Below are positions 10,501-51,900 of a DNA stretch of 64,000 nucleotides, piece by piece. Every line of letters begins with the position of its first letter. Positions within the stretch are counted from its first letter, which is position 1. Origin of the DNA: Hemicentrotus pulcherrimus (Eukaryota > Echinodermata > Echinoidea > Camarodonta > Strongylocentrotidae); contig BEXV01000867.1 in assembly GCA_003118195.1 (NCBI GenBank), positions 48,902 to 112,901 on the forward strand, given 5' to 3'. The notes beneath the pieces were generated by a model. That model had not been told where the DNA came from and ran no database searches. It was given only the letters and a program-made list of their open reading frames with translations. A program made the position numbers and the translations under genes.

Positions 10501-13500
10501 ACAAGCAAAGGAAAAATTACTACATTCACAAAGATATTTTATTGGTGCAATAAAGTGCTAGAATAATTTAAACTCCAGAGCTTGCTCAGTCTTTTGACAT
10601 CATACAATTTGGGAATTCGTGATAGAGTTAACTAGTTTACACAAGTTAACTAACAAACTTACACCACTGTCATAGAGAATCTTCCAGCCCTCCTTCTGTG
10701 CTGGGAACTTCTTTCTGATGCCACTGAAGTTTGGCATCTCATCAGCACGGCAGATCTCATCCCAGGAGGCCGAAGGTAGCCAGGAGGTAGGGTTAGAGTG
10801 AGGGTTGTCCAGACCTACACCTCCAGTCAGTAAGAAACGCCATTCCTCGTCCCTCACCTCACCAGTGTGTTTTAGTAGGTTGGTATTGAGGATGAAGGAG
10901 AACAACAGCTGTATAGAGAGAGCATTATTTGTTAATATAGTCGAGGCACTTTAATACATGTACAAGTTTTTTTACACTTATCAAGGCCTGCATATTTTTT
11001 TTCTACAATTATCATTTTAGAATTAAAACAAAATAAATTCTTCATTGTAATATTTCACATGTTGGCCTTCAACCAACAAGATTTCTCTTCAAACCTTGAT
11101 ACAATTGGATAAAATGCTATATATTGCTGTATATTGGAATTAATCTAAGGTGACACTCTATTTTCAGTGCAGACAGATGCATCTGAAGAGGCCTGAAGGT
11201 CCATCTATATTTTACCTTGTCTTTCTCAAAGAGAGAACGGCAGATGTTGCAGTAGAGAGAGTAGGTGAAGTAATCCCTCAAGTTCTCAAGACGCTTGTCC
11301 AGATTGTCAGATTTCTCAGAGTTCTCAATGGCATTGATGAACAAGTTGACAAACCTGGAAGATTGAAGAGAAATGTAGATACAGCCATATCATGAGTTTG
11401 TAAATGAGAGAGCTTCATACATGGCATCTCAGTGTACAGCATTATACAGAAATGATTTTGAAATTTAGTCCATCTTTGCAAAGCAATTGTTGGATGCTGG
11501 ATGTTAGATGAAAAATTATTGAGTTCCTAAGCAATTTTACAGAGCAAGTACACAACATGGGCTTCAGCTTCAGCTTATCCTGCCTCTAGCAATGGTTCTA
11601 AGGAAATAATCACTTACCATGTAAGAGAGTACTGATACATAGGTTCAATGTTAGCCAGGTCAGCAATGGTGAAGAAGAAGCATTATACAGAAATGATTTT
11701 AAACTTTGGTCCATCTTTGCAAAGCAATTGTTGGATGCTGGATGTTGGATGAAAAATTATTGAGTTCCTAAGCAATTTTACAGAGCAAGTACACAACCTG
11801 GGCCTCAGCTTATCCTGCCTCTAGCAATGGTTCTAAGGAAATAATCACTTACCATGTAAGAGAGTACTGATACATAGGTTCAATGTTAGCCAGGTCAGCA
11901 ATGGTGAAGAAGAAGCATTATACAGAAATGATTTTAAACTTTGGTCCATCTTTGCAAAGCAATTGTTGGATGCTGGATGTTAGATTAAAAAATTATTGAG
12001 TTCCTAAGCAATTTTACAGAGCAAGTACACAACATGGGCTTCAGCTTCAGCTTATCCTGCCTCTAGCAATAGTTCTAAGGAAATAATCACTTACCATGTA
12101 AGAGAGTACTGATACATAGGTTCAATGTTAGCCAGGTCAGCAATGGTGAAGAAGAAGCATTATACAGAAATGATTTTGAACTTTAGTCCATCTTTGCAAA
12201 ACAATTGTTGGATGCTGGATGTTGGATGAAAAATTATTGAGTTCCTAAGCAATTTTACAGAGCAAGTACACAACCTGGGCCTCAGCTTATCCTGCCTCTA
12301 GCAATGGTTCTAAGGAAATAATCACTTACCATGTAAGAGAGTACTGATACATAGGTTCAATGTTAGCCAGGTCAGCAATGGTGAAGAAGAGGATACTAGA
12401 ATGGGTAGCGATGGGCTTGTATCCTAGACGAGTCTTGTTAATCATCTTCTCCGTCTTATCTGCGACCGCTTGCTTCTCTGAGATCTCATTGGCAAGGACT
12501 TTAGAAGAGGACAGGACCTTGATGGCTGTCTCGTCTTCCAGGATGTTGCCTTCAGATGATGAGAGCACCTCCAAGATCTTGTTCTCAATTTCGTTCAGTT
12601 GCCTGGTGAAAAGGTCAAAGGTCAAAGGTTAGCACTCAGATGTAGACTACCTTATCCTTGACAAATTTGGGGTGTATGTTTTAACAATAAAATCTGTTGC
12701 CTCTTCAAGTCTCATATATAAAAAATCAAAAAGTATAAAATATTGTGATGGCATAGGTTTTTTCTGAGTTTGTACTGTAATCACCACTGATATAAAATTC
12801 ATTAAAAAAAGAGAGATACTTCAAACTGCTTCCAGTAGAGACTAAAGCAACAACAAAAAGTTGGTCCGACAACATTCTCTTCAACCAATCTGAAAGATAT
12901 TCAAAAAATTCAAAGTTGATAAAAAGTTCTCATTTTCTTGGGAATGGCATACCTCTTGTTGTCAGCACTCTGGATGATGAGGGCGTTTCTCTCTTCCTCC
13001 AGCTCAGGACGTTCCTTAGCAACCACAATACCCAACAGCTGGTCTTCTAGACCCTCAGGAGTGATCATGAAGTTCAGCAGGGTCACCTACAGATTGTTAG
13101 AAATTGTGGGAGTTAATCCCAAGCAGTCTAATCAAAACACCCATGTAGCATTCATGTAAAGGTTTAATTGATATGTCATCAATCCTGTTGTAGTACAATT
13201 CAAGATAGTGCCTTTGATTGTATTTAAACATATAGCATGACCCATTTCCCAAAATAATTTGACTGCAAAAACAAAATCTATCTCACAATCATAGCTTGAA
13301 ATTTAGTTACTATTGACAATAATAATAATAATATTCCGCTTTTACATAGCGCAAATACATCTACGATGTCTCTAAGAGCTTTACAGATATATATAAGGTT
13401 ATTGAGTAGTAAAAACATTTAAAAACATTTGTAATGTTATGAACACTGATTTGTAAATGATCAAGTGTGTTGACTTTCTCAAAACTTAAACAAAATATAA

Positions 13501-16500
13501 AGTGGAAAGTTCATATCTACAGTAGATGTAAAAGTGCTCCCATATTGTGATGTAAGCTCAATTTATATCTCTCTTCTTGAATTTGTAGACGATTGGTGCA
13601 CCAAAGAAGTATGCAACGGTAACAAGTTAAAAAATATTAATACTATCAACATTTCAAAATGGCTGTGCAAGTTTAAAGAAGCGATGTAAGAAGGGATTCA
13701 ATACTAACAACACCATCAAAGCTTGGTTCTCAAAACATGTTTGTTGTTGAAAGTTCAACAAATCATTAGTGTCAAAGGTCATATATACTTAGGGTTTCTA
13801 TTTCTTTAAAGGAGTGAGAAAGCTAGGTCATACCTTGACTGAAGTCTCAGGCAGGTAGTGCGGGTTTCTGAGCTTGGTAGTGATGTAGAAACGGAAGTCA
13901 TGGGAATACTCTATGGTACTGTCTCCTAGACGGATACAGATGGCTCCTCCAGACTTGAAGGTCTGCTTCAGGAGCAACGGCTCCAGGATGGGATCCAGCT
14001 CCTCGGCTACATTCTCAAGCAGAACCTGATTGGTGGAAAATGTAATTAAATGGCATGCCCTAATGACAATGTTTTGACATCAATGAAATTGATATCCTTT
14101 TTCCCCTACTGATCAATAATGTATCCTAGTTTCCATAGTTTCAGCTATATATTCTGTTACTGCTCTGAATTTCCTGCTTACCCTCTGCTGTCTCTCTACC
14201 ACATACATTTTGCATCTTGTCTGAACATACATGTATACTAAAATGCAATAACACCAACACAAGACCCCATTCAATGTGTTGACAGAAAAAAAAATATATA
14301 AATACATATACAAGTGTAAATTAATTAATCTTTCATATATGTTTCTCTCTCTCAGCCCTCAAAAACACTTCAATTACAACCTGTTTATCTATCCAAGGCT
14401 ATTTAATAAAAAACTGGAGCAAATTTCCTGTTCCGTATAATTTTCTTATTCACTCTCCCATGTTTTGGAATGTTATTACAATTTCATACGCTCGTTGTTT
14501 GTCAGGCACATACCTCAATAATGAATTAGGTAAGCATGAGAGCGTAGGCAAAGAGAAAGGTCTTTGTAATTGCCTTGGTTCCAATGTCAGGATATCATGA
14601 CCAGTATCTATTCAAGCAGTTCTCAAATAAGCTTTCAACGAGTCTGTCATAACCCTAGTAAAATCACCATTACACTAGGATGAGGAGGATCGCTAAAGAA
14701 AAAATGTCTTTCAATAACGTAATTACAAGGATTATGTCATGAGTTTACATTTGACTTTCATCTAACCCCTAAGCTCCACCTTTTAATCTGCCAATTATTA
14801 CTTCAGGGGTGATGTTGAGCACTCCTTTTTTTCCCCAACCACCCCCCTCCTTGTTTTTGGAAAAAATGGCATCTAACAACGTTCCCCGCCTTTTGAGTAA
14901 GAAAAATTGGTTGCAAATAGGAAAGAAAAGGGAAAATAAGGGAAAATCAGGAAAATAGGGGGAAAATTGGGAATGAAAAAAAAATTGGTAATTTTTTTTT
15001 TAAATAGGAAAACCGATTTAAATAGGGTAATTATCAGGCCTGTAATACTTACAGGAGTCCCAAACTGGACACAGTTCTCCAGAGTCCTCACAAAGTCACC
15101 ATCGGTAAGCTTGATGACATGAAGGTTGTTGGCTTTCTCCATGTTCTTGACCCACTTATTAGCTTGACCCTGGGGATCAATCATGAGAGGCCATCGACGG
15201 GCATTGCTATAGGAAACAAGAACAAATTTGCAAAACTCCTTATACTTTGTTTGTTGGTATTGGTGACATGCATAGTATATATCTTCAATTCCATGTTCAG
15301 GTCATGCAATAAAAACGAGGCAGGATCAGCTTTCAGTGTTAATTTTTACAAAAAGGGTTACCAATTAGAATTCAAGTCTCTGAAAAAAAAGAAAAAAAAA
15401 TTATCTACCGGTACATCTTATGTGGAAAAAGCTTGAAATGTGCTCAATAGTTAAATTGTTAGGGCTGGAAGTCAGGTTTTTACCTCACTGCAAAAAAGGA
15501 CCGACACCCTTTTTCATTCCCATTTTCTTTTTTCATCTTCTTAGAGGTGAATAAAGGTAATAGCAATATTAAATTTTGAATCATTTTGTTTTGAAATCAC
15601 ATGTTAGAAGTAGCAATATTTTCCACATCGTCTTTTAATCCCATAATCCAATCAGGGGGTATATATTCAAATTTGTGCTGAACTTAAATTGTAGATTCTT
15701 ATCTTGGCAACTAAGACCACCAGTATTGAAATGAGAGCAAGGGATTTGAAGAGGATAAATTGATTGATATACAAAGTGAGTAGTTAACGAATAGGAGTGG
15801 AAGAGAATGACAGAATTAATTCATATTTGTAAAAGTAAATGCCCTAGCTGATGTAATAATAGGATTATGTCCGAGTAGTTTATGAAAAGGAGTGAAAATT
15901 AATAACAAAATTACTTTCATTTAAGTAAAGAAGATAACCTGTTTCTATGGAACCTTTTAGAAAACAGGGACCTGAGTAAAACCTTTTTTTTTCTAAACTA
16001 ATAGAATATAATAAGTCAATGTACTTTTACATCTAGGGCAGGCAATTGCCTGCTTTATCAGACGATGAAGCATTGTCTTTTATTAATGTGCCATTGTGCC
16101 TCCAAAAAAACACATCAATAATTCAATCCTTGCTACATGTATGTGTAGTGAAATGTAAAGGAATAACAGGATATTCAATTCATCTAGGGAAATAATTTTA
16201 AAGTGCTACGGTAATATTAGTTTAATCTCATGTTCACTCAATTCAATTAATTAATGGATGTGAAGTGCATGTGCAACACACCGTATCCTTCCATAAATAC
16301 TTGAATTAATGAATAAAATATTGTATCATCAACTGAGCCTTACATGCACTTGATGAAAGGGCCATTTGCAATCTCATATTGAAATATCTCATTGGCAATA
16401 TCCCTTTGGCATTAATGAGCATCAAATTAATCAACCTTTTTTTTAATCTGTCTAGGATCATTCAAAGCTAAATAATAGAGATTAATCTTCTCTTTTTTTG

Positions 16501-19500
16501 TTTTTTTACTTAACTCCATTATGAGCATACATTTTCTTCATGTAAGAAATATATTATGCAAAGGGTCACCATTTCTAAAGAAAACTATACAATATCGTGC
16601 TAAAGATTTAGTTTCCTAAAGACGAAAGCCTCCACCTGCAGCACAAATCCTGTCATAATAGTGGTGTGGGCATATTGAGCTGATACACATAAGAGCACAA
16701 AAATATAATGAATAGAAAGACTATACGGCTATTAAAATTGATAGGAATTAATAGTCCATCCATACAGCTGCTTCTTGGTTTGATGGCGATATTTCTTATC
16801 ATTCAATGCACCTGTCTCGGGTTGATACACTAATCATTCATAATTTGATGCTTTGTTGAAAACACAAGGGGCAAATCAAATCAAATCAAAATCATATTAA
16901 ATTAATGCTGACTATGTGTCTCCTCCTCTCTGTATACTTAATGATGTGTACAGGCCATTATGACCACCAATATATTTTACAACTAAAATCTAAGGAACCC
17001 CATTCTGTTTTGAAGACTTACAATTAAAACCTGATATCATTTTATTACTAACTTGTAAAAAAGTTGATAAATACTAGTCATTCAATGTTGACTAATGTTT
17101 AATCAGAAGGCTTTAAAAGATTTAAAATAATCAAAATTATTCTTTCAAGTCTAAATAACATTGGGGGGATTCGAGGCAGCTCACAGCATTAAATGTGCAT
17201 GAGGCTCAACAATGGATAATGTGGTTCATTGTAAAATGCCCTTAATAACCAAATTTCCTGACTCCTTTATTTTTAATGAAAGCACTTACCTTCCTCCACA
17301 TACACACACCCACACAAAAAACTGATCTTGAATGCCCACGGGCAGTTACTTTATAACAAAATCCACAGCAGATGGTTCACTTGAAATGATAAATTATGTC
17401 CAAGAAGGTAATTTAAGATGAAGGAGACCCTTGAAATCTTATGACAAATTAGTCCTGCTTTCCTTCCCTGACTAAAGTTCAACGATTTTGCCCCATGAAG
17501 ATGACGAATTAATTCCATAGACATTCGACAGGGAACTCCATCATTCATACATGTATACACTACAAAATACAGACATTAATTTATCATTACAGTTTGATGT
17601 CATCAGTTTCCAGCCCAAAGGATGTTAAAATCTGTGTTAGAATATGTTAACCCCCTTCTAGCTCCAAAGGATCAATCTAGCTATTTGGACTGATGGTAGA
17701 AAATTTGTATTAATTTGAAAGAAAGGATATCTTGAATAATATCGCTAGTGATATTCGTTTGTCTCGTAATGTGGTCAATAAGGGATCTAAAAGACCACAT
17801 TGTGAGACAAACGAATATCACTAGCGATATTATTTTTGATACTACATACGCAATGAGTAATATATTTAGCAAAGGATATCTTGTTGGGAAATTCATATAT
17901 GGGGAGAGGCTTGACCTAGATGCATTTATTCTGTGTGGACTATTTTAGTCTACTACAAGTACTGTTATGATTTTCAAGTACTATCTTTCGGTACTCTGAT
18001 TGCAAGGTTTTGATTAATGGATAACTGAGCAGAAGGTACTAAAAATATATCAAATACCAGTATAATATAACTTACCAATGTAGGTCAGAGAATTTGTTTA
18101 ATAATTTTCTGGAATGAACAAAATTACTAACCTGATAATGATACCATTCTCAACAGAGAAACTGTCTGTGGGTAGACCAGCAATGTTCCAAGCCCTAATC
18201 TGGACCTGGTCTCCGAGTGTGTTACTAAGGGAGAACTCTGTTGATGTTGGAATTCCATTAGTACTGACTTCTCTGAACCACTCTTTGATTTGATCCTGTA
18301 AGAAGAGGAATACAACAAACCAAAGGAATGTTTAGCATTCTTTCCATATTAATTAAGGTGTAGAGAAGATACATGAGCACAGAACTTCATATGTTGCTAA
18401 ATGACATTAAAATAGTTAGGACTAGCAGAACATAGTGACCGTCACCCATTTGCAAATTTATATACTCTGTAGGTAAGGGAGGAGGAAAGATATGATAAAA
18501 CTCATAAATATTAGTGTCTCTCCATCAAAACATGCCTAGTCTTGGCGTGAATCGACAGTTTACTAGAAGAGGGAAAGAAGAAAAACAAAATTAAATCATA
18601 ATGACAGATAAAAATGTGATGTGGTAAATGAAGGCTTGCAAAGAAGTTTAGGGGAAAAGCAGTAAGATATACATGTCTCAAAGAAGTCACCATAATCACA
18701 TCAAGAAGACATATAATCTAGTTGTATCTGATTAACCTCTGACCTTTGACCTTATTATTTTCCTATGGGGATGCATGCTGGTACCAAGTTTGAAACTGTT
18801 ATGGTTCTGGAGAATCTTGGATCATCATAACAAAAATACAATCCTAAATGCTTTAAGTGTATTGACCAATGACCTTTAACCTGACCTTTGAACCAATAAA
18901 TCTATGTTGCATATCTTCCTACGTTGGTTGATGCATAATTGTGCAAAAGTATAAGTAAATACCTCATACAGATGTGAATATAACACCAAAACAACAAAAC
19001 AAAACAAAAAGTTGTATCTATATTCACCCTTGACCTTTGACATTATTCCACCAACCTAGTCAGCTTATCTCCTTATGCAGACGCTGACTATACTACTAAG
19101 TTTGAAGTTCAGAACTCTAATGGCCATTGAGATACCGTGATAGTAATATTTCTTTTAGGGGAGGGGGCATAATTTTATCATAATGACATTTGACCTTTGA
19201 CACATATGAATGGACAACCTGAAGACACATCACTCACATATATGAAAGAAGTGTCAACACTAAATTGGGTCGATTAATCAGCTCATCTGATAACAAAATT
19301 AGGATGGATTTAAAAATTATCAACAAACGATTTACACTGGAAACTTATGCCTGGTGGAGGGAAAGGAAATTGGATGTCGCCTGGGAGGAAAAGCTCAATA
19401 GAAATACGAAGGATAAGAAGACATGATAAAAAGACCACAGTTTAATCTAGAGTAATAAGCTAACATGATAACAAACACACCAAACAAAACAGCCCACATA

Positions 19501-22500
19501 TGCCACGTTAGTACATGGTTAAGAAAGGAGTGATAAAGGCAAGGAATATTACCATCATCCTCATAATTACATAAACTGACACATCAGAAAGAAATATGAC
19601 AGTATAATGAAGAAGAAAAAACACCCATGGATGCCAGAGCAATAATATCAACAGTGTCTTGCCTAAATTGCATCGTCATTAAAGTCAAGCTACAAGAAGC
19701 CAGGTGACATTGTAATTACTAAGAACACGATATTACAAAAAAAAAGGGCTGCGCGACGCTCTTTGGTAAAAAAATCGGTGGGCATGAGAATCGATGGTAG
19801 ACTGGGATCTATAAACAAAATTGATTGGCCAAAACTTGGTGGATTTGACAATGCCGGCAACTACATTAACGATATTTGGACTTGTTTGGGGTTAAATAAT
19901 TGACACACTTTTAAAAGCAACAGATGTATTCTTCTCAACATTCCCGCGATGAGTTACTGCTGAACTACCAATACAGAGTTTTTAGCAGTTTAATTTTTTT
20001 TCAGTCGCATTACACGTTCGATTCGCGACTACTAAGTCTTAGAAGGATTTTCCCTCTCCAAAATCGCTTATAAAGTCGCGATCTAAAGTAATTATCTCTG
20101 TTCAGAAAAAATAACGAATCAGAACGCACTTCATCAAAGCGCGAATAGTAAAAGCGGTGTTTGATGTATTTATATATATTTCCCCCTGAGCACAAGCACC
20201 TGTTGGCATACCCACCCTATTTGTGGTGTGTTTGAGTTGGTTCAATCGCAGCATTCATACCCGTCAAAGCAGACACTCGATGGATGACGTCGAGATAAAC
20301 TTTGATTCCGGGATATCGACGGGCGCCAAAAACGACACTTCACGAGAAAGGATTTGAATCATCATAAACACCATTTTCACTATTTTCCTTGGGGACGTAA
20401 TTTATCAATTTTCGAATGCCATGTTAATTGGCTTTTGTTTACCGTCGACACTTGCAAGAAAACGGAGCGAAACAGAAAACTGATTTTTCATGGCATGCCG
20501 TGTTGGGTCTACAAATCTTATTGAACATACAAAATAACAGCACGTTCTAATCGTTTGTTTATTCACCATTATTTTCTCAAGAACACACAGAATATGCCAA
20601 CTACGTGCATAAATGAAAGGAACCAAACTTCATTCTAGTAAACGTGTTCTTCCTGTACTTCCGAGTCTTTTACAGTTTAACTACTGAACTATCAAGGCGT
20701 GCACCAAACTTTTAAAACATCGTGAAACAGGCGGGTATATATTTTAAAAGCGAATTTCATCGCGACTTTCAACAGATGATCGGATGACAAAATTGACTTT
20801 GGAGTTGACGATTCAGTACCAAAGGTTTGCGCAACGACTGGTGAAAATCAATTCTTCTTTCCTCTGGAAATGGCGGTGGAAGGGCAAAATACGTTAATGC
20901 GTCTTTGCATACGATTGATAATCAATTTCTCTATTTTGAATTTCATTCGTAATTAGTGACGCGTATATAAATAAAATTCAATGCTCCCATTCTAAGAGCG
21001 GCAATCATATTCGCGGTGGTCACCATAGTGATATGTGGTCACCATAGGTGGTGGGTTTGTCACATCAATCAAGCAATTTAACACCAATATGTGAAAGAGG
21101 AGATATCTATTATTCAAACTGCTCTGGATTTATTCGGACATCATCATTGAATAAATACCGGGACCTTTCTACGGACTCGTTCACAATACTCGAAGTTTAA
21201 CAAATGATCAAATGGTCAATTTAATGATTAACAGCAAATTGTTTTCTGGAGACACGATTCTATAGTTCTTTGAGGAAGTATGATGCATTAACAGAATGAC
21301 GGATTAATTGCTTATTCATCAATTCTCGTAGTATCAAACGCTTACACGAGAATTAGATACACATAATTATAAAGGCACAAATCGCACAATTGCATGGATG
21401 AGGGGAGAGCCCTTCGAAAAGGCGGCAAATGAACAAGAAACATGACTGCATGTCTTAAAAGAACAAGGTCTGGGTATGTTCTTTCATCGTTATCATCACT
21501 TCTCGTCCTCAAAGGCCAGTGTGTGTGCTACACCATCACCCATCGGTCGTTCTTTGCACTTAATGCTCCCTTCCTAATTGACAATTATACCCGGTTCAAC
21601 TGAAGCGCGACGAGTTGAAACGGGAGGGGGTTAGCCTTAAGACAATTTTTTTTGTAAGGGGAAAAAGAAATGGCGGGAGCTATGGCTCAAAGTGAAACTA
21701 CTGTAGCAGGTGTTACAATAGACGTGAACATCACTGCTGGAAATGAAGAGGACTTTGAAACTGGACTTGCAGAAGTCTTTGAATCCACATTCCTTATTTT
21801 TGTGTCGATTCTGGGGACATTTGGAAACATTTTGGTGATAGCAGCTGTGCTAAGCACGCCCACTCTCCGGACCCGTGGCAATATCTTCATCATCTTCCTT
21901 GCCATCACGGACCTTATAACAACAGCAATCTTGGCCCCATTTTTTATCTTTACGTTATTGAATGGAGGTTGGCCCTACGCCGAAATATACTGTGATATCC
22001 TAGGGTACGCGGCTCTGATATGTCTGTCGTTATCCGTTATGTCTTTAGGTCTCATAGCCATCACAAGGTACGTCGCCGTTACCCGTCCAAAGCATGTGTT
22101 CCACAAGCAATGTAATGCATGTGTCATTATTGTAGCCTTCAGCGTGTTGGCGACACTCAACTGCCTCATCGTAATCTTGCCCGAAGTGGCGGATTTCGGC
22201 GACGTGGGATACAACTCTGACCTGGGACACTGCTCCATGCTTTGCGAAACAGACAGAGATTGGTGGTACTGCTCGACCTTGTTCCTTGCAGGAGTAGTGA
22301 CCACGATGACCATCACGCCTGCATATTATGCCTTGACACTATGGGTAGTCCGGAAGAGCAGAATAACTGTTGCTGCCATCAACCGCAACAGTGAGAGGCA
22401 TCACTCGACCAGCAAAGGCGTCGCTCCTAAAGCAGGCAATCGTGCCCCCACGCTTAGCCGAGAGGAGATCAGATTGACCAAAAAACTTATGCTCTTATTT

Positions 22501-25500
22501 CTCATTTTCTTCGTCTGTTGGTGTCCTTACTCCATCGTGATCCTGAGCGACAAGAATGGCATCATCCCGACACCCCTGCACCGATTCACAAATCTTTTCA
22601 TATGGGTGAACTCCTGTCTTAACCCATTTCTCTACGCTTGGATGATGCGTTCGTTCCGTAATGCGTACAAGAGCGTGACCAAGTTTAATAAGTGGAGGAA
22701 GTACCTGCCTTGTAAGAAAGTGCGGGAAGAGGTAGACTCTGGGTCATCCATTATTATGACACGAGGAGCAGCGACTCTTTAAGCATACACAAACTATTAC
22801 TGTCGACACAGAAGTGATATAATTATAGAGCAGAACAACAGCTTTTGAATTCGTGTCATAACCAGTGTTCTTTCAAGTGGGTGATTGTTTCATGATTAAG
22901 AATGATGTTGAGAAACTGCTACTTAGCTTTACACATGAACAGAGATGTTTTAAATTACGAGACCTCGCACAGGAGGTCGGTTGTACAAAGTATGGATATG
23001 ATAGTAAAACTTTCACTCATAAATTAATATATAGGCCAGAGATTTTAATAATCACATGTGGTAACATGGAGTGTTCGCCATACAGTAACAAGTGGTGATT
23101 AGTAAGTCAATAAATGTGTCTATATTTGTTTCCTCGTTAGTGTTGAATGAAAACTAAATCAAAAACAAATATTTCGTTATTCGTTTGCCGAAAGGCAGAG
23201 AGCCATTCTTCCTCTCAGTTTGTTATTTTAGAATATTCTATAACAGGTTGGAAAAGTTTTAAAGAAAACCGGAAAATAGATGGATGCTATACCTCTTAAA
23301 ACATGAGCTCTTATCAATTCATATTTTCCCGTTAAAAAAAACGAAATTCATAAATAACCTTAGAATTATGGCAATGTAGTATTTTTTCTATTCAATGAGA
23401 ACAATAAATCATATTCATAATTNNNNNNNNNNNNNNNNNNNNNNNNNNNNNNNNNNNNNNNNNNNNNNNNNNNNNNNNNNNNNNNNNNNNNNNNNNNNNN
23501 NNNNNNNNNNNNNNNNNNNNNNNNNNNNNNNNNNNNNNNNNNNNNNNNNNNNNNNNNNNNNNNNNNNNNNNNNNNNNNNNNNNNNNNNNNNNNNNNNNNN
23601 NNNNNNNNNNNNNNNNNNNNNNNNNNNNNNNNNNNNNNNNNNNNNNNNNNNNNNNNNNNNNNNNNNNNNNNNNNNNNNNNNNNNNNNNNNNNNNNNNNNN
23701 NNNNNNNNNNNNNNNNNNNNNNNNNNNNNNNNNNNNNNNNNNNNNNNNNNNNNNNNNNNNNNNNNNNNNNNNNNNNNNNNNNNNNNNNNNNNNNNNNNNN
23801 NNNNNNNNNNNNNNNNNNNNNNNNNNNNNNNNNNNNNNNNNNNNNNNNNNNNNNNNNNNNNNNNNNNNNNNNNNNNNNNNNNNNNNNNNNNNNNNNNNNN
23901 NNNNNNNNNNNNAAACCCCCCCCCCCCCCCCACTAGTTTTGCCAGGAGAGATTAGACCTCCCTGCATGGTCACTGACCAGCTCTCAATTAACATAAGAAA
24001 AAGGGGATCATTGGGGACCAATGGTCACCAATAAGGCATTGTTAGCTATATAGAGGGCGCAAGTAGCTGTAAGTAGTGCAATGGGGCTTCAAATCATTTT
24101 ATAATATATGACTAACGTCTTTCATGAAAGATTAAAACTAATGTCAAGTGTGAGCTTAATTTTTACAAATTTTAATCATTCTGGAGAAGAAGAAGAAACA
24201 AAGTTGGCAAATTTGCATTTATTGTCAGATGGAATATGAATCGTTCAGAATTGATTTTACATATCATGAATCTTGAAGGTCACAGCTTTTTCCCTTCTTT
24301 AGGTTTTCCATCGGATTCCATTAATCATCTGATAAAGACGTAGCAATATGTATATAGCTACAATGTTTATTGTTACCATGCCATTTCTTCAATTAATCAG
24401 CATTAAAAGCCTCAGAGGCGCTCTTGCGTACGATGAAGGCATGTTTTCATTAATATGTATATAGATAGAAGTAATGGATTCGTTGGGTTGCACAGCATTT
24501 TTAAGAGCTTTATAAACAATTAAAAATATATTTCATAGTATACGAATCGTTTTTTTTCTAGTACATTTTACAAATTAGTAATTTACTCCAGCACTATACA
24601 TAATCGCTTTTAATACTATATGGATTGCGATAGTAACTGTCATGCCTTGAAAATGTTAATATCAAATGGGGTTTTGAAGAAAAAAAGGGACATTCACAAT
24701 TGATTGAAAATTTAACAGCGATGCACTTTGACCATAATTGTTCACAACCAAACCAAATGTACTCTACAATATTAATACACTTTTAAAAAACGCGCTGCCA
24801 TTAAAATGTACCCGAAAAACATGTTAAGTGGTAAATTACTATGTTGTAAACGTTGAAATAAATGAATAAAAAGTGAGATGACTCTAAAATTATTATCGAC
24901 CTTATTCACAGGACATCTGTTCTTATTTGGTTGGGATATCAAACAATTATGTCTGAGTCACCAATCAAATCAAAAGTGCTGTTTCTATTCAAAGTCAGTG
25001 GCATGTTTATTATTCGATGTTGTTGGATTAAAAGGGGGAAAATGTGTTTTCTTCGACATGTTGTTTAATCAAGATATAATGCATGTTATGTCATTTGTGC
25101 ATAAAGTGAAATATCGAACAACGAAATAGCACTACTTCTTGATGGCAAGTTCTTGTGTAAGTCGTGATGACTGAATTTGCAAATGTGAGTTGGGTGCCAC
25201 AGTATTTTGATTCGTAATTGGAAAGTGGTGGCTGATTGATTGTTTGATGAATGACAGATTAACCGATATGAATAGCACTCTGTTTTGAATGACAAGGATT
25301 ACTTGTTGGCATACGCTGTGGATTGATTCACTGTCGTTCAAATTTCCTTTGAGGAATTTGTAAAGTAAAAATTGGTTTGGGGAGGTTTCACACATCTCGA
25401 TATCATTGGTAGAAATATTCCTACTCTTTATTAGGGGGGTAGTATCTATACCACTGAGTTTGCTTTGACGAATTTGTATCGTGGCATGAGTGGCATGGGT

Positions 25501-34500: not shown

Positions 34501-37500
34501 CTCCTCAGCGATTTGTTCTGTCAAAACAAATATCATTGTATTTAACTACCATACGGAGAACCCAAAGGACTCTCTCTCGTTTCCCTACATGTTTAGTAGT
34601 TATTTTCAATAAAAAAATAAAAAACATTCTGTACAAAAACACGATTAAAATATATCAAAGAAAGGTGGTCTTCTAATTGGATGACTTTTTTGCAAGCAAT
34701 CTTCTCCTTACTATTTTTAAATGTCCTAGACATGTATAATGAGGTGGTTTTCTTTTTTTCTTTTTTTTTTTTGTTTCAATGGATATTCGATGCAAAAACG
34801 TTAAATATATATTTTACCACAAAACGGTCTCTTCATCTATCCTACACTTACAGGCAGTACTCATTCAATGAATCAGTATGTTGGTTGGTTCTAAAATCAT
34901 CTTTTGAAGTCAAAGAGAGTGATTTTAAGAGCAGGTGAAATAATATCACTTTCGCCACCAGGTGCTTTGGCATTCTATCTTTTACTCAATTAACTGAGCC
35001 GTGATAAACCGTTATTGTTTGTGTAGGAATGTTTAGTTGTATCAACTCGTTTACACAATGTCATTAAAGTGCATGAAAACTAATAAAGTTGTATATCAGA
35101 CAGGTTCACAATTTGTGGTACGAAGAGTTTTGAAGTAGTCAAATTGAGAGAAGATTGGCTGGAATGCTCATAAGGGAGCTGAGAATGTGCCTACATTTGC
35201 GAGCAAAGAAGTTTGAATCCGATGATTGGAGTGATCTCTAAAGCGCTTAGGGACATAATTTAAGAAATGTCTACAGACCCATCGTAATCGGGTTTAATGT
35301 AAACTGTATGTGGTAACTTCGACACGAACTCATATGGACTCGGAGAGAGTTGCAATTATATACGCCAAATTACGATGTGTGTAATTGAAGGTGACGTGAG
35401 AAGGAAGATACTCTCAAATCTCAAAACACAAGAAAAATACTGAGACAAAAAAAAAAGAGGTTGAAAGATAAACAAATAAAAGCAAATATCAGATTATTGT
35501 CGAGGGTTCCACGCAATATATGCGCGATTTTTTGTTTGTACTTTTTTTGTTTTTGTTTTTTGTTAAAGGAACGGCGAGTGGAGATATTTTTTTTTTANCA
35601 GGGATATTTGTTCAAGCCTATACAGTTTGTACAAGGCCGTTATGTAATCACATGGTTACATGCTTATCAATATTTGAAATAGTCAAGAAGCAAATGACCA
35701 AAGATCACTCTTGGGCTATATTTGCTAGCAAGGGTAATTAAGCAGACAAAAGTTGTTGGCAAAAATGCTGAGACAACAGAGCTTGCAGAGGGTGTGTCTT
35801 TAAGGGATGCGATTCGGGAGGAGCCCTAAAACCACCTAAAACGGAGAATAAATTTTACTCTATCCGTATTCTAGAAAAACTTTATAAAGACTCCAGTTTT
35901 ATGTTTGACGTTTGACTTTCAAGCTCTTAAAAAGTATCGTATAGAATGATGATCAAGGCAAACAACCGTACAAAATGAATACAACAGATGAACCAATTAT
36001 TGAGCAGAGGTATTCCATGAGAACCTCTGAGATTATTGAAGTCATACTTCTTGGACTAGTCTGCGTTATAGGTACGATTGGGAATCTTCTAGTAGTGGCA
36101 GCTGTCATTACTACCCGATTCCTTCAAGTCCGACAGAATGTCTTCATCGTTGTTCTAGCACTCACAGACCTTGTAACTTCGGCAATCTTAACGCCGTTCT
36201 TTATGCTTTGCCTTGTTCGTGGTGGTTGGCCCTACAAAGAAATAACTTGTGTGTACTTGGGATATGTGACGATCTTGTGTCTAACCACGTCAGGTTTGAC
36301 CATTAACTGCATCGCGGTTTGCCGTTACGTTACAGTCGCTTACACCAATCCAGTACGTCGAAAGCTCATGCATGGTAGGGTAGTCATCGCAGCTTCAACA
36401 TTGCTAATCGCAGTGGTTGTTGGAGCAGTGCTCTTACCCGTCTTCGGTTTTGGTGATGTGGGCTTTAATGAAACGCTGGGACATTGTTCATTAAAATATG
36501 ACAACCAGTATGAATGGTTTTACGGTGCACTGTTAATCACTTTGGGATTCGTCGCGACGCTCACCATAGTTCCCATCACCTACAGCCTCATCTTCTGGAT
36601 CGTACGCAAGAGCAGGAGGTCCGTTGAAAGCACGAGCATGGCAAGTCGAACCGGACCGAGCTCTAGCGTAGAACATTCAACAAAGCAAAACAACAGGTCT
36701 CTTAAATCATCAAGGACCAAACATCCACGAAGGAACATTACTCGAGATGAACTGAGGCTTTCTAAGAAACTACTGAGTCTTTTCGGGGTCTTCATCTTGT
36801 GCTGGATACCCTACACTGCTGCCATCGTTTCGGACAGCAATTTAACCGTGCCACAACAAGTTCAACGCGCAACAAACTTTCTCATCTGGATAAACCCATG
36901 TTTAAACCCATTCCTCTATGCCTGGATGATACCAACATATCGGCAAGCATACAAAAGAATTTTTAGTTATATGCTTTGTCGGAAACAGTCTTGTTTTCTG
37001 TAAACTACGATTTCAAAAAATATCCAAAGTGACTGTTGGTACTCTGCAAAATATATTGATTGGAATATACTTCTTTCTTTAAAATTTCATGAACATGTAG
37101 TTCTTACTCTTGTGATGTAACCTTTTTTTTTTTGAATGATATAACATTAGCATACATCCGATCGATTTAAATATAAGTTATTAGATGCAAAGGACTTTTG
37201 TAGGCCTGCACTAAACAATCCAAACGGGGTTGTATATATCAAAATAATATATATATTGATTAAATAATAAAAAATATAATATTTTTAACCGCATTCGAAC
37301 ATATTATTACACCGGGTTTCATATCCGATGTTGATTATTAAATCGATATATCTTTGGACGAACATGTTCAATATGCGAAAATCATAACAAAAGTGTTCTA
37401 ACTTTGTTAAAATTGTCCCTTTTCGGATCATGAGAATATATTTTCAAATGTGTCACTTGATGCATCACTGCACGGAAATTGGTATTGTATTTGAATTTTG

Positions 37501-42886: not shown

Positions 42887-42919
<33 letters not shown>

Positions 42920-45900
42920 CAGAGACAGAGACAAACAGACAAATAGAGAGACATAAGNGAGGGAGGAGAGAAGGGAGGGAGGGAGGAGAGAAGGGAGGGA
43001 GGAAGGGAGAAAGGGGAGCAAGGAGTAAGGAAGAAAGGGTGGTAGAAAGGTATATGGAATTAAATTAATGTAAATTAGTTCTATTTATGTTTTATGATAT
43101 CAGTTGATTTTTAAAGCTTTTTCCAAAAAAAACACACTAACCACGATTTATTTCTTAAGAATTTAGAGAAATCTATTAAGTTCACATTCTAAAAAATAAT
43201 TAACAACTGAAAAAAAATTTGGATTCCTTGAAACAAATGATAAAAATTAAATGGTCAATTTGTCAAAGATGATATCAAAAACTTAAGAACTTGAAAATAA
43301 AACACAGTTCTCTTTTTAGCTTGGCAAACTGTACACTTTGTCTAATCTTACAATCATTATTTTCTTTAAATACAAAGACCCTGCCGCATTAAGAGCAAAG
43401 TTCTTAACCAGAATGAGATCACTCCCCACAATGTCTCACATATTTGATCATGAGAGAAGGGCAAGCTCTACATGGCAAATAAGATATATCGACCACTTTG
43501 TAAGCAGTTTCAGGGACTAATGTGCCATTTACTTGATTGATTAACTAAATTCCTTCACAATGCTAAACTAAAGCACATGATTGGGCTCCTGATCAAACCA
43601 TAAATTGGATGAATATTGTAAATGTATGTACATGATAACAGCGTCACAACTATTTGGATGTAGGCTTAATGAGGAGTGGTGTTGTAATATCATCCACTTT
43701 AGAATTGAGATGCAAATACAAGAATCTAGTCTGCCCTAACGACAAAGGATTTTTATTCCTATTTCCTCTAATCCCTTGTTAATGAAAATCCATTTATCAC
43801 ACACTCTGAAGATGTAAAATTGGCCCCGTAATTGACGACAATGTTGACATTTTGGGAAGAGCCTGTCAAGTGCTGCAATTAATTGAGGAAATGAGCAAAG
43901 ATAACTCATGGAGAATGGGAAATATTTAAAGCAATTTCTAAAGGGAAAAAACAAGAATGAGGACAAATTTCAATACAAATATTTGTATTTCATGTACCGC
44001 TTTATGCACTAAACATCTAGCCCCCCAAAAGGCTTAATGATGTATTTGGCCATTTGAATAGTAAATTACAGAAATGGACTAATGATAATCATTATCCTCC
44101 TCCCTAATTCTTCCAATTTTCCCCTCCTTCTTCCGTCATTCCAACCTTCTTTAACACAACTTTCTACTCCTCTAAGCCATCTTCAGTCCATTTCAACTAT
44201 CTACAAGCGAACAGAGTGCATTTTATGACCTCTCGTTACATGGCAACAGCAAAGAAACTATTGCATAGAGTTTTTTAAAGGCAGGGAAAAAACACAATAG
44301 CAATGTGATGACAAAGAGAAATTACCATGAATTAAGACACTAACAATGCTTGAGGTTAATGTACAGCTAAAATGAAAGACTACCAAAAAAAATTAAAAAT
44401 GATGAGAGAGAAGTTTAACAAAGAAAGATCAGAAATTAAAGAATAGTCATGATATAAACTGTGTTGATAATACTTTGTCAATAATAATAATAATAATAAT
44501 AATATAAAATCCGCTCCAAATTTTATCATGTTAAACCAAAAATGGAAATTCTTTTTGCCCAATTGATTGTAAGCCCGGCAGCCACTGAGCAGCGCCAGAT
44601 CAACGTTGCTCTATCCCTTATATTGTTGAAAGCAAACAAGGTAGCAGCAACTCCCGTCTTTAACGTCTTTTGGTATGACGCAGCTGGGGTTCGAACCCAC
44701 GACCTCCCGGTTGTGAGGCGGACGCTCTACTGACTGAGCCAATGATAATAACATTTCTATTCAACAGTATAAGCAACAAATGAAAGATTTCAAATTTGTG
44801 ATTTGTTCAGTCAATCACAAGTTTGTCTACAAGGAATCACTTTGTTGCTATTTGTGACATATCTCTCCAATTGTAATGAATTCAAAAATTCAAGGTACAC
44901 ACGTCCGAACAATCATACATGCATACATACAAACATATATACACCTTCTCATTAAAAAAAGTACTGGAATGTATATAGGATGCATGCACAAAGTTGAACA
45001 CATTGTTAGTTAAATCATCAGATGATATTTAGTAACTCCATTAATGATAAAATTGAACTTAATTCCTCAGAAAATGTATACCGGTATACCACCAATGACT
45101 GATTTGAAGGTTGGTTAACTAAACAATAAATGAGCCTTCTTTCAACAGGTACAAAACTCATGAAAAAAACAAGAACTCATGAAAATTTTCAAGCAGACTT
45201 AAGGAAACCAGTTACTTTCAACCTGCCATGGTGGTGCTATATATAACAAGGATCAACATGTGGAGTAATGTTTCAAAGACCATGCAATCTAGAGAAGAAC
45301 AAAATACCAGATCATACAGATGCAGCCCACTTTCAACACACATGTAGTCTGATGGCACAGACTATTATTCTACACTTCAACACAAGTCCATGATGTCTCT
45401 GGTTATGTCAAACAGAGCAGCTACCATACAGTGCCTATTGACTGCAGCCTCTGAATAGCCTTCTAGTTCAGACCCTCTGTTGTGCATTATGACCAACGAG
45501 GGTTCGTCCCTGAAAACTACTGTCAACAAGCAAACCATCCATACATCAACAAAGTGAGAAAAGATTGAGGTAAGCTAACACAAGAGATGTGGGTTAAACC
45601 AACCCAGGAGTTTACTCATGCACTCAAATAAATCAACAGCTCATCTTAATGTCTCATAAAATGAAGAGGACTCATGGAGCGGGAAAAATGCATGAATGTA
45701 ACAGAGATGAATTGCATGAGTAGTGTAGCGATCTCTTTGTTCAGGCAAAACATAGCAACAAATGTGTGACAGACTCGTTTGTAAATAAGATAATACCAAT
45801 GATGCTAAGCAATTAAAAAACAATGCTAGATAAATATTAATGATAAAGTTAGATGACTTGAACATTGATGATATAACAATTACAGCAATTAAAGAACTTT

Positions 45901-48900
45901 GCATTCAAATGGAACATTAGAATGCTGTTCCAAAAGGCTGAAAACTTTTTCAAACTTCTATCTAAAAGTGGCTAGGAATAACACAAGATGTTAGACCTGA
46001 AAGAAAAAATGCAATATCATAGCTTCCTATTAGACATGAAACAATGGCTGCTTTGGAATCCATGACTTGCTTATTCTTCCACTGTACTCCGTTAAATTGA
46101 TTAGCTACTTGAGTTGTTTGAACTTCTACTAGGGTTCCAAGTTGTGGGTTTGAAATTGAACAGAACCCTGATGAATATGAATTAATATGAAGATTTTGTT
46201 TTATGTTCAATTTTATCGAAGGCATTTGCTAACATGCAGTTTCTTTATATAGAGTAAATATATTCCTCCCTTAAGCTGTGATAGCTTGAACAGTTCACTC
46301 TTCAAGTCCACTTATAATGAATCCATACAAGTAATTTCCAAAGCTTTCTGATCTTTAAAGCTTTTGCTTTGATAAATGCACTTTTGTATCTATTGAATAT
46401 CTTCCTTTTTTACAGTGAACCCAAACACCAAGGTATTAAACTCTGTGCAACTTACAAAATGTATGGATTAATCATTCAATTCTCTTCAATGACATTGTAC
46501 TTAATTGGATTGCAGTTGTAATTGCACTGGTAGGCAAACATCAGGCATGGCAACTTTGGTAGTCATAGCAACCTTTGTGAATACAGTTTGCATTCATTAA
46601 GACTCAATTTGTGCCCTACCTCTTTCATCTTGTGTGTAGACTATTCACCAAAAGTTGATGGCTACCAATCAAGGCTACAGCAACAGAACATCCATACTAT
46701 ATCATATGTTATATACCTCATTTTAAGATTCTTTACTAATCCTGTCTTGTGATTGGTTGAAAATGCAGTCATGTTCTTAACCATGCCCGCTAATTGAAAT
46801 TCATAGTCATTTTTCCATGGCTCTACCGGTTTATATCCATTTTTATAGCACTTTTTCCATGGCTGTCAAACGTGACGTCATTTTGCTGCGATTCCCATTT
46901 TGGTTTACGTGTTATACCATATTAGTTTCTTTTTTGCGATGACCGATGCGCAATACCGTTAACGGTGTTTGAGTGCAATTCGATTTTGGTCGCTGCATTT
47001 AGGCGACGAATCTACCAATCCACGCAGCGCAGACGACCGATCGCCATTTTGTGTACTAGTCTCGATTGCAAAATACTGGGGTTTTTAGTTTCCAATTTTT
47101 TGTCAATAAAGAGGCAAAATGGAGGACACAGCTATGCCAAGATTTCAATTTATGGAAACCTAAATAGGTGAGTCAACATTTTCCCCTTTTTCGGTATATA
47201 AAATATATATTGACTGCTTTTAATATTCGAGGCATAGTTGTTTCTAAAGGGTCTCGGGAAACTCACAACCTGCTATGACCCCGCAGCGCAAGCGCCTTGG
47301 GGTCATAGCAGGTTCTGAGTATCCCTTGACTCTATAGAAACCACTATGCCTCTCAAAGCAGTCAATATATCCTTTATATAGTAAAAAGATTGTGCTAGTT
47401 TTAACTCACCAGTCTGTAGGCAGAAGTGAATGCACCTAGGTATGCGACCAGACCAGAAGAAATGAGCACATCACCAGTCAAGTTGATGTAGAGTTTTCCA
47501 AGGTCAGCAGCTGATTGGTTCCATCTAAACAACAAAGAATGTTCAACCTTGTTAAACAAATTAACCGTAATCAGTTTTTTACCATTGAGGTACTGGTATG
47601 TTAAATGATTCAATGCTTGATTAGAAATATGGAATATTCAGTGCATCAATTCATTTCATTGAATTACTGAAGGTTAACCGGTGGAGAGTCAAATACTTAG
47701 CATAACAAATTTATACAAACAGCAACTAAGCCTGAAATCCCATTAAAAATATACAGTAGCCTATTGTATATAATATGAGTTTAAGTAAAAGAGGGGTATA
47801 TCATTAAGAGCTTGCAAACTATATTAATAACAAGAACTTTAAAATAGCTATAGGGGTCAATTAAGCACCTAATCTTAAAGCAAACAGGCTGCTTTGTGAA
47901 CTGCCCTATTTCTGACTACATGAATAACAGACTATTATAGAGATATGAATATATCGTGATAAAGTAGAGTTTTAAAAATAACATAAGTGTATTGTTATGC
48001 CTCTGACACCATCTTCAGTGGGCAGAGACATAAAACAAAATTCCAAAATTTGAATCCATGACCCACTAAATGTACACCCCGAGGATAAACCACTACACTA
48101 CATGCTACATTAGTCTGTCTGACCTGTCTTTCTCTCCTCCTAGTCCACCAATGACCCACTAAATGTACACCCCAAGGATAAACCACTACACTACATGCTA
48201 CATTAGTCTGTCTGACCTGTCTTTCTCTCCTCCTAGTCCACCAATGACCCACTAAATGTACACCCCAAGGATAAACCACTACACTACATGCTACATTAGT
48301 CTGTCTGACCTGTCTTTCTCTCCTCCTAGTCCACCAATGACCCACTAAATGTACACCCCAAGGATAAACCACTACACTACATGCTACATTAGTCTGTCTG
48401 ACCTGTCTTTCTCTCCTCCTAGTCCACCAATGACCCACTAAATGTACACCCCAAGGATAAACCACTACACTACATGCTACATTAGTCTGTCTGACCTGTC
48501 TTTCTCTCCTCCTAGTCCACCAATGACCCACTAAATGTACACCCCAAGGATAAACCACTACACTACATGCTACATTAGTCTGTCTGACCTGTCTTTCTCT
48601 CCTCCTAGTCCACCAATGACCCACTAAATGTACACCCCAAGGATAAACCACTACACTACATGCTACATTAGTCTGTCTGACCTGTCTTTCTCTCCTCCTA
48701 GTCCACCAATGACCCACTAAATGTACACCCCAAGGATAAACCACTACACTACATGCTACATTAGTCTGTCTGACCTGTCTTTCTCTCCTCCTAGTCCACC
48801 AATGAGCCACTAAATGTACACCCCAAGGATAAACCACTACACTACATGCTACATTAGTCTGTCTGACCTGTCTTTCTCTCCTCCTAGTCCACCAATGACC

Positions 48901-51900
48901 CACTAAATGTACACCCCAAGGATAAACCACTACACTACATGCTACATTAGTCTGTCTGACCTGTCTTTCTCTCCTCCTAGTCCACCAATGAGTTGCTCAG
49001 CTCTTTCCAGCTTCTTAGAACACAGGCCCACTTGATTCTCAAGATCTAGCTTCTTCTTCTTGTTAGCTTCAAGCTTGTCCTGGTAAAAGAATTCAACGAT
49101 TTGTTCTCATAAATAGCCATTGGCAACAGTATTATATGACTCCATACATGCACATGTAGCAGAGTACCAGCAAACCCTAGATTGATGTCTTGTCTTGTAC
49201 TAGGCTGACACACAAACATGGGATGCCATTTGTGTGATATTCACATCAAGTCTTGGTGAAACTTAATGTACACTTGCAATATCAAAGATCAAAGAACTCA
49301 TTTGAAATGTTAGGTTCAAGAAAGAGTGTGAATGTTCTGGGAAAAAAAACACACACAATATTTTCCACTGACACAGGACTATTTAATATCAAAATCTAAA
49401 GGCATGGCATATCAATAGTGCACTTTGATGTTTATTACTAGTCATCTGATGCCATAGAACTTATAGTAGCATTATCCATATAATGTTTGATAAACCATAC
49501 AACAATATTTGAAGCATTGTTGGTAACAAGCAGGAACAACAAGAACTCCAGGGATTCAAAATCTGGTTTCGGAGCACAAATTGACATCTACAGGTTGAAG
49601 CGCACAAAATTGTGTAAGTGAATTATAATAATAGGTTACAATGCCCTGCTGCACACAGTAATCAATAGTAACCAGATATGAATTTCTCACAATTTTAAGG
49701 CAATCAGGTTTCATCTGTCATTAAAATAGTATTGTAAATCCTGGGCCAGTCTTTTAAGAGTTGTTATTGATTACAACTTATTTGCGATTAATATCAATTG
49801 AAACTATTTTCATGAGGGATACGAGACAGCAAAATTGTGATTGATTGGAGGACTTGAAATTGATTTGGATCAATCGCTACTCTAAGATAGGGAACTGATT
49901 AGCTAATAGGCTCTCTATTCGATTGATTGAAATCCCTGTTTTAATGCATAAAAGGGACCCCTGACACAGCATGACCAGAAGTTTCCTGATCCCACTTACT
50001 TCAAGCTTCTTGAGTTTGTCCTGGACCTCCTTGAGAGCTGCTCGTTTCTTCTCCAGGCTTCCCATGGCTACCTTGAGCTCACCCTCAGCAGCGGCCAAGG
50101 CTTCCTGCTTGGGGGCTACCACTTTAGCCACTCTGAAGATTTGAAAGACATCACACAAGTGTTTAATACAGAGGAATCACTGAATACTTACAATATTCTG
50201 TCTCTCTTTAAAGAGGGTACCCATCTTTTGTGATATTAATCAAAACTGTCATTTTAATAATGAGATCATGAATGAGATAAACAGAGAGACAGAAACAGAG
50301 CATTAAAAAGGAAATAATGCTTGTAAATTTCCTCCTGTTCCTCTTACCTATTTGAGCTTTTTTGAGCTTTGAATAAGATTTTTAAAGAAGAGTTGCTATG
50401 ATGAACATATTTCTGAAAATGGAAACTCATGTTGCCAGCATGTTACCAGTGATGACCTCATTACGTTATCTTGGTATCCCCAAATCAAGATGTTACATGT
50501 GATCACAACAATATTTTTGCCACATCTTCACTGCTTCATATGGTTTCCAGACTCATTCAGTAATAGTAAATCTTACTGGTCATATGATTCCATGGCACGA
50601 CACCACTTGCAGAGACCCTCGCAGGCTGTAGAGGCTTGTCGGATCTTAACAGGATCAAAATCTGGGTTGGGGACGTACTTGGTACGAATTGTCTTTATGA
50701 TGTTGGCAGGAATGTTATCCTACAAAGAAAGAAAGAAATATTCATGAAACTTTAATGACGTCACTGTACAGTAGGATTTGTATATAGCTGAGCTGGTGAG
50801 ATTCTTGCACAGGTTTTCTTTAACATAATTTAGATTTTAAAAAAAGATGATCTCTTTCTCATTCTTTAAAAAAAAAACTCATTATCAATTACTTGTCTTG
50901 TCTCCTTTATGTTCAATTCAATTCAATTCAATTCATTAATTTTTCCTCTTTCAATCGTTCGATGATGGTACATTTTAACATATTTTCATATTTATATACA
51001 TATAGATCAATTTGCAATGTTCTGTCATTGCTGCCTTATACCCCATCCTACCATCATCCTCATCCCCCTTCTCAATTGTATACATGTTCACATCCATCCC
51101 ACTCAACACATCTTCATTATCCCAATATCACATACCTGCCAACATCTGAAAATAAAATTAGGAGTTTCTAGCAGGGTTCGCACTGCCTTACCATGGAGAT
51201 TTCAAAATTGTGAAAAATCTGAATATTCCAAATTTTTAGGTCCAAAAAAATCCAGACAATCTGAATATTCTGGATAATTTGGAAGGGTAGGCAGGTATGT
51301 TATCACCAGACAACTGAACTCACCTTGTCGTACTCATGGAGACTCTGCAAGAACTTCATGTCTCCGAGCATCCTCTTGGATGGGCCCCAGAAGTCTTCAA
51401 TCTTCTTCCCAGAACCTCCTGGATCTGGGATCCTGTCAGGTTTGATTCCTTTCAAAATACAGACGGCTTCCATCACAAGCCTTACACCAGCAGGGGGGCT
51501 CTTCATAGCCTTTACTACAGTGATATCCTGCCATTCAAAAGTTATATTCAAACCATAAGAAATTACTTGTAATGCATGGGAAAATGATAATACTACTAAA
51601 AAACACACATATATCATCTGCCTAAAACTGCATTTCAAGGCGCCATAGTACTGACATCTTAGTCTGTGTGTGTGTATGGATCGATTACGCCTTCTGCTGG
51701 AGACACAATATAAACCAAACTCAAAAATCACACATGACACACTTATGTTGAAATTACTAGTTATCATTCATTTAACTATTTAATTCTTTTTGACATCCAT
51801 TGCTTATTTGAGGAATGACATTGCTCCTGTTGGCAATGATTTTGAGAGATAATTAGCAAAGTTTGGAAAAAGAAATCAGAGTGTTTTTAGGTAACAAAAC

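What the first reader, a model, noticed from the sequence alone, without database searches (positions are those of the whole stretch)
11440..48991. Two introns of one dynein gene carry tandem arrays grown from the exon end plus its splice donor
In the AAA6-region exon (12330-12602) and the CC2 exon (48961-49079), the last 61 and 31 coding bases respectively, together with the GT donor and adjacent intron, are repeated downstream in the intron, 4 and 10 times. The arrays differ in sequence, unit length (235/242 versus 93) and age, so the process acted independently twice in the same gene, both times with the array placed immediately after the real donor. Only the first donor in transcript order preserves the frame. 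I infer a recurrent mechanism of minisatellite birth at exon-intron borders, or tolerance of repeated donors because the first one wins. I do not know a described name for this class.
Basis: partly seen in the sequence, partly recalled or inferred. Interest (0 to 1): 0.85.

Follow-up and report, generated by a model that had tools for sequence, protein, structure and literature searches.

The report
Tandem repeats spanning splice donor sites
In a sea urchin dynein gene, two tandem repeats each begin inside an exon and copy its end and splice signal into the next intron; the same has happened in other genes of this genome, by a rough count about as often as random duplication would give, so it looks like tolerated accident rather than a special mechanism.

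Summary
The gene is a sea urchin DNAH7, minus strand. Array 1 (11438-12390; 4 copies, spacing 235/242/235) and array 2 (48058-48991; 10 copies of 93) begin 61 and 31 bases before the ends of exons 12602-12330 and 49079-48961. Every copy carries the donor; reading past the first donor meets a stop. Neither unit was found elsewhere, apart from paralogous dynein exons.

It is not peculiar to this gene. Donor-motif searches gave 17 places, array 1 included; of 15 read by eye, 10 clearly and 1 probably start at a real exon end. A paralogous dynein has the mirror case at an acceptor.

Donor-directed birth is not supported. Donor-motif arrays lie on 11 contigs; two same-composition control motifs give 20 and 25. 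Anchored arrays (6-7) match the control rate, given an assumed donor count. In 203 kb of dynein stretches 2 of 6 arrays are donor-anchored (0.57 expected, p = 0.10).

Best reading: ordinary tandem duplications across a donor, tolerated because the outermost donor still gives normal mRNA. Splicing is untested.

The parts
12330..12602 (-). DNAH7 exon whose last 61 bases (12330-12390) are the first copy of array 1
   Evidence: Spliced alignment to P0001; open frame ...[19 protein letters not shown]
12324..12329 (-). Real donor of array 1, ATG|GTAAGT; read-through meets TAA at once
11438..12390 (-). Array 1: 4 copies (1 starting in the exon + 3 in the intron), spacing 235/242/235, short and long copies alternating as a 477-bp doublet
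11355..12329 (-). Intron 55 of the model, 975 bp, most of it array 1 (about 263 bp without the 712 bp of extra copies)
48961..49079 (-). DNAH7 exon (...[20 protein letters not shown]) whose last 31 bases (48961-48991) begin array 2
48955..48960 (-). Real donor of array 2, CAG|GTCAGA; read-through meets TAG after five further codons
48058..48991 (-). Array 2: 10 copies of 93 bp (1 starting in the exon + 9 in the intron), 99% matches
47525..48960 (-). Intron 49 of the model, 1436 bp (about 599 bp without the 837 bp of extra copies)

Best explanation
Two ordinary, independent tandem duplications whose segment happened to run from inside an exon, across the splice donor, into the intron, and which later grew by unequal exchange or slippage. 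They could be fixed because the copy that joins the exon body keeps the real donor in place. If that outermost donor is used, the mRNA is unchanged and every extra copy is removed as intron; use of any later donor retains an in-frame stop. The same has happened at other genes of this genome, at about the rate expected for randomly placed tandem arrays. Shown: anatomy, recurrence, no excess of the donor motif over two control motifs. Inferred: the duplication mechanism, neutrality, and that the first donor is the one used.
For: Anatomy and read-through stops. Units not found elsewhere except in short paralogous dynein exon matches, so no dispersed repeat was inserted (the tool warns that a missing match is no proof of rarity). 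Bases shared just before the copied segment are few: 2-3 in array 2; 5 in array 1, counted from a tag that itself starts 5 bases inside the array. Donor-motif arrays on 11 contigs versus 20 and 25 for two control motifs; anchored arrays 6 clear + 1 probable versus 4.6-7.6 expected for an assumed 15,000-25,000 true GGTAAGT donors. Placement model on this gene's introns: 2 donor-anchored of 6 arrays, 0.57 expected, p = 0.10; 3 boundary-spanning, 1.13 expected, p = 0.08. An acceptor-side mirror case exists in a paralogous dynein.
Against: Both window arrays being donor-anchored has probability about 0.01 under the placement model (post hoc), and both ratios in the dynein sample lean above expectation. 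The donor motif lies in fewer arrays than the controls (p = 0.02), so backgrounds differ between motifs; a third control, the reversed form of the second, gave 798 hits, again showing how uneven motifs are. Acceptor-motif arrays outnumber their reversed control (57 versus 13 hits) and could not be classified. From recalled splicing work, not checked here, the intron-proximal of two equal donors can win, so use of the first donor is not guaranteed.
Confidence: 0.75

Rival explanations
1. Arrays are born preferentially at splice donors, for example through transcription- or U1-linked breakage or R-loops at the exon-intron border.
For: Both arrays with units above 30 bp in the window, and 10 clear + 1 probable of 15 donor-motif places read, are donor-anchored.
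Against: The places were found with a donor motif, so the search itself favours anchoring. Donor-motif arrays are on fewer contigs than control-motif arrays, and an acceptor-side array occurs too.
Confidence: 0.1
2. The repeated donors have a function: alternative splicing into stop-containing isoforms, or U1 recruitment that protects the long transcript from early ending.
For: Donor copies within each window array are identical. In array 1 exon-derived columns vary less than intron-derived ones (1 of 61 versus 17 of 182, Fisher p = 0.05). The 1995 interferon-gene title speaks of multiple splice donor sites in a transcript.
Against: Array 2 and the C148 and C1025 arrays show no such contrast (four arrays tested in all), and two distal C1025 copies have changed the donor (GTACGT, GTTAGT). 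Recent copying alone keeps copies alike.
Confidence: 0.1
3. Assembly artefact: copy number inflated or collapsed by the assembler.
For: Copies are 95-99% alike; the assembly has 4189 contigs and N runs, one of 490 bases in the window.
Against: Variant copies occur in a fixed order (short/long alternation in array 1; single-base variants in the second and last of the ten copies of array 2), no N lies inside either array, and both join unique flanks. Exact copy number may still be off.
Confidence: 0.05

Closest known systems
[quoted passage not shown] seen only as a title in reference lists; paper not held). That the gene is 6-16/IFI6 is recalled.
   Same: By its title, a tandem array that supplies several splice donors to one transcript.
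   Different: Here the units are 31-242 bp, most with longer exon pieces, in unrelated sea urchin genes; whether several donors are used is unknown here. The 12-bp unit of the human case is recalled, not read.
Internal tandem repeats at exon-intron boundaries of human duplicated genes (De Grassi and Ciccarelli 2009, PMC2812944; outline and passages read)
   Same: Expanding tandem repeats across an exon-intron boundary.
   Different: There they vary between paralogs and can form novel introns or alternative transcripts; here the intron is already needed by the gene and the real acceptor lies outside the array.
Intron gain by tandem genomic duplication (review PMC3443670 and Lehmann et al. PMC2891723; passages read)
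   Same: Tandem duplication that copies a splice signal and is tolerated by the splicing machinery.
   Different: That needs duplication of an exon-internal AGGT so that a new intron appears; here an existing intron is lengthened.

Membership tests
Minisatellite (unit 15-100 bp, as given in the abstract of PMC3618361 shown in listing) | Tandem units of 15-100 bp | tested here: met
   Array 2: 93 bp x 10. Array 1, with 235/242-bp units, exceeds this range, so for it the feature is not met.
Donor-providing minisatellite (interferon-induced gene type) | A real exon's donor lies inside the array and the copies carry donors | tested here: met
Donor-providing minisatellite (interferon-induced gene type) | More than one donor copy is used in transcripts | not testable with these tools
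   No RNA data
Intron gain by tandem genomic duplication | A new intron bounded by the two copies of an exon-internal AGGT | tested here: not met
   The acceptors of introns 55 and 49 lie outside the arrays, 83 and 533 bp beyond their ends
   11 versus 20 and 25 contigs; 6-7 anchored versus 4.6-7.6 expected with an assumed donor count; small unselected sample leans up without significance
Dispersed or mobile repeat | Unit present elsewhere in the genome | tested here: not met
   only C866, plus 56-63 bp matches to two paralogous dynein exons for unit 1

The most novel reading that the evidence does not exclude
In this sea urchin lineage, exon ends with their donors are repeatedly copied into introns by a process that favours transcribed donor sites, giving many genes a row of like donors of which only the outermost makes protein: a natural series for how the spliceosome chooses among equal donors, and a route by which introns grow out of coding sequence.
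Probability: 0.1. Interest if true: 0.7.

Novelty: new member of a known kind. Interest (0 to 1): 0.42.

Why it matters
These loci are a ready natural experiment on donor choice: rows of 4 to about 32 similar or identical donors after one real exon (the longest at C500, 31-bp unit), where in the two dynein cases only the first can give full-length protein. They also show how existing introns can lengthen with exon-derived sequence, and they warn gene predictors, since copies of true exon ends with intact donors look like exons. No new molecular mechanism is needed to explain them.

Tried and rejected
Insertion of a dispersed repeat: rejected, no copies elsewhere found. Coding repeat inside the exon: rejected for both arrays, since the dynein frame stops just after the first donor. 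Donor-targeted birth: not supported. Acceptor counterpart by motif: 57 hits on 12 contigs versus 13 reversed-control hits; no letters were left to classify them, so donor-versus-acceptor asymmetry is unresolved. Two-copy 9-mer search: 3 hits versus 3 control hits. Spacing 215-245: 16 hits on 4 contigs versus 27 control hits, contigs not listed. Spacing 75-105: 45 hits on 11 contigs versus 58 control hits, which one search places on 20 contigs. Literature searches for duplicated donors and donor competition returned no paper; the one sea urchin search listed one unrelated paper. Two papers read in passages for intronic minisatellites did not bear on it.

Weak points: the number of true GGTAAGT donors in the genome is assumed (7 of 65 mapped DNAH7 donors, times a recalled intron count). 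7-mer frequencies come from 202,597 bases of dynein-rich stretches. The two control motifs differ 1.75-fold in rate, and the reversed form of the second gave 798 hits. Places are counted as contigs. The placement model treats duplications inside exons or across several boundaries as not tolerated, uses DNAH7 introns for arrays from three contigs, and gives two unresolved exons 150 bases. Reading of loci was by eye. Of 17 distinct contigs were read; C447 and C961 were not; C257, C369, C2506 and C2657 were read as not anchored. A looser self-comparison listed 10 clusters in the dynein stretches: 3 boundary-spanning, 1 holding a whole exon, 6 inside introns.

Full report
What the window is. The window is G000:C866:48902-112901 of a 414-Mb, 4189-contig assembly. 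A protein search with joined reading frames gave 4095 hits among 7948 scored candidates (120 listed), the best being Strongylocentrotus purpuratus DNAH7, P0001. Its exon matches on this contig, most at 90-100% identity, run in order on the minus strand, so this is a sea urchin close to S. purpuratus and the gene is axonemal dynein heavy chain 7. I resolved 65 introns by splicing against P0001, median 498 bp; two junctions could not be resolved.

The observation. Array 1 starts 61 bases before the end of exon 12602-12330 and runs to 11438; array 2 starts 31 bases before the end of exon 49079-48961 and runs to 48058. The donors ATG|GTAAGT and CAG|GTCAGA are identical in all 4 and all 10 copies. 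Continuing in the dynein frame past the first donor gives a stop at once (array 1) or after five further codons (array 2), so only the outermost donor can yield full-length dynein. Without the extra copies the introns would be about 263 and 599 bp, ordinary for this gene.

Composition and age. The 298-bp query from array 1 matched array 1 (four places) plus 56-63 bp of two paralogous dynein exons; the 224-bp query from array 2 matched only array 2. Array 1 is a doublet of short/long copies, which points to at least two rounds of duplication or exchange. Its exon-derived columns vary less (1 of 61) than its intron-derived ones (17 of 182, Fisher p = 0.05), while array 2, C148 and C1025 show no such contrast. 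Few bases are shared just before the copied segment: 2-3 in array 2, 5 in array 1 counted from a tag that starts 5 bases inside the array.

Is it special to this gene? No. Genome-wide pattern searches for repeated donor motifs gave 17 distinct contigs, this window's array 1 among them as a positive control. I read 15 by eye. Ten are clearly anchored at an exon end: C148 (about 10 copies of 80 bp, 74 exonic + 6 intronic), C1025 (88-bp unit, 11 full copies in the stretch held), C1150, C423, C583, C2129, C500 (31-bp unit starting at the donor, about 32 copies by TRF), C866 itself, and two-copy cases at C1124 and C42 (old; its exon resembles a GalNAc transferase, recalled, not searched). C2853 is probable. 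C257, C369, C2506 and C2657 are not anchored; C447 and C961 were not read.

How sure are the exons? Of eight exon peptides scanned against Pfam, one passed its cut-off (C148, G8 domain, E = 1.5e-14); C1150 gave a haem-NO-binding match below cut-off (E = 0.03); the rest gave none above cut-off. Against solved structures C1150 matches H-NOX proteins (E = 1.1e-4), C423 matches heparan-alpha-glucosaminide N-acetyltransferase (E = 0.013), and C583 gave nothing meaningful. For C583, C2129, C1025, C500, C1124 and C42 the exon call rests on an open frame ending at the donor.

Is it more than chance? The motif search favours real donors by design, so I compared contig counts with two control 7-mers of the same composition at the same spacing: donor motif 11, reversed motif 20, permuted motif 25. 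In raw hits the donor motif gave 45, the reversed motif 58, the permuted one 89, and the reverse of the permuted one 798 (contigs not listed), so motifs vary widely. The donor motif lies in fewer arrays than the two counted controls (p = 0.02; p = 0.21 against the first alone). At the pooled control rate, 15,000-25,000 true GGTAAGT donors would give 4.6-7.6 anchored arrays, 6 clear plus 1 probable were seen. The donor number is an assumption from 7 of 65 mapped donors and a recalled intron count.

A sample not chosen by motif. The held dynein stretches (202,597 bases without N) contain 6 arrays with units of 40 bp or more: 2 donor-anchored, 1 acceptor-anchored at C1079:88742-89196, where about 29 bases of exon start plus acceptor recur upstream, and 3 inside introns. 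A placement model on DNAH7 introns expects 0.57 donor-anchored (p = 0.10 for 2 or more) and 1.13 boundary-spanning (p = 0.08 for 3 or more). Both lean upward, neither is significant; two of two in the window has probability 0.01, but that was chosen after the fact. A looser self-comparison listed 10 clusters, 3 of them boundary-spanning and one holding a whole exon.

Reading. The simplest account is random tandem duplication plus tolerance. A duplicated segment that starts in an exon and ends in the following intron leaves the exon and its donor whole and pushes the copies into the intron. That anchored arrays are not fewer than the control rate predicts suggests the cost is small. The unproved step is donor choice: from recalled work on duplicated donors, the intron-proximal site can win, so these genes must favour the outermost donor by some means (exon definition is my guess). 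Only RNA data can settle that.

Known precedents. [quoted passage not shown] paper not held). Repeats at exon-intron boundaries in human duplicated genes were surveyed in 2009 (PMC2812944, outline and passages), and tandem duplication of splice signals is described as a genuine route of intron gain (PMC3443670, PMC2891723, passages). One full-text search for this in sea urchins listed only one unrelated paper; it covers open-licence papers only. So this is a new and multi-locus example of a known kind.

Noticed in passing
window 21658-22782, 33496-34545, 35945-37003 (+): Three intronless rhodopsin-family GPCR frames (Pfam 7tm_1, E 1.3e-37 to 8.3e-39) on the opposite strand inside the 29-kb intron 50 (47409-18296) of DNAH7.
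   Followed up: partly
G000:C1079:88742-89196 (L022): Mirror case in a paralogous dynein: exon start plus acceptor repeated upstream in the intron, 168 bp x 2.7.
   Followed up: yes
G000:C2959:10982-12066 (L026): Tandem duplication at offset 543 bp, 542 bp at 100% identity, containing a whole dynein exon: a very recent exon duplication or an assembly error.
   Followed up: no
L036:1427-2223 (C148) and L046 (C1025): Strongest further donor-anchored arrays: about 10 copies of 80 bp after a G8-domain exon, and 11 full copies of 88 bp in the stretch held.
   Followed up: partly
L042:1478-2481 (C500): About 32 copies of a 31-bp unit beginning right at a real donor, most carrying GGTAAGT or a close variant.
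   Followed up: partly
window 44683-44741 (-): Marginal tRNA-like Rfam match (30 bits against a cut-off of 29), perhaps a degraded copy.
   Followed up: no
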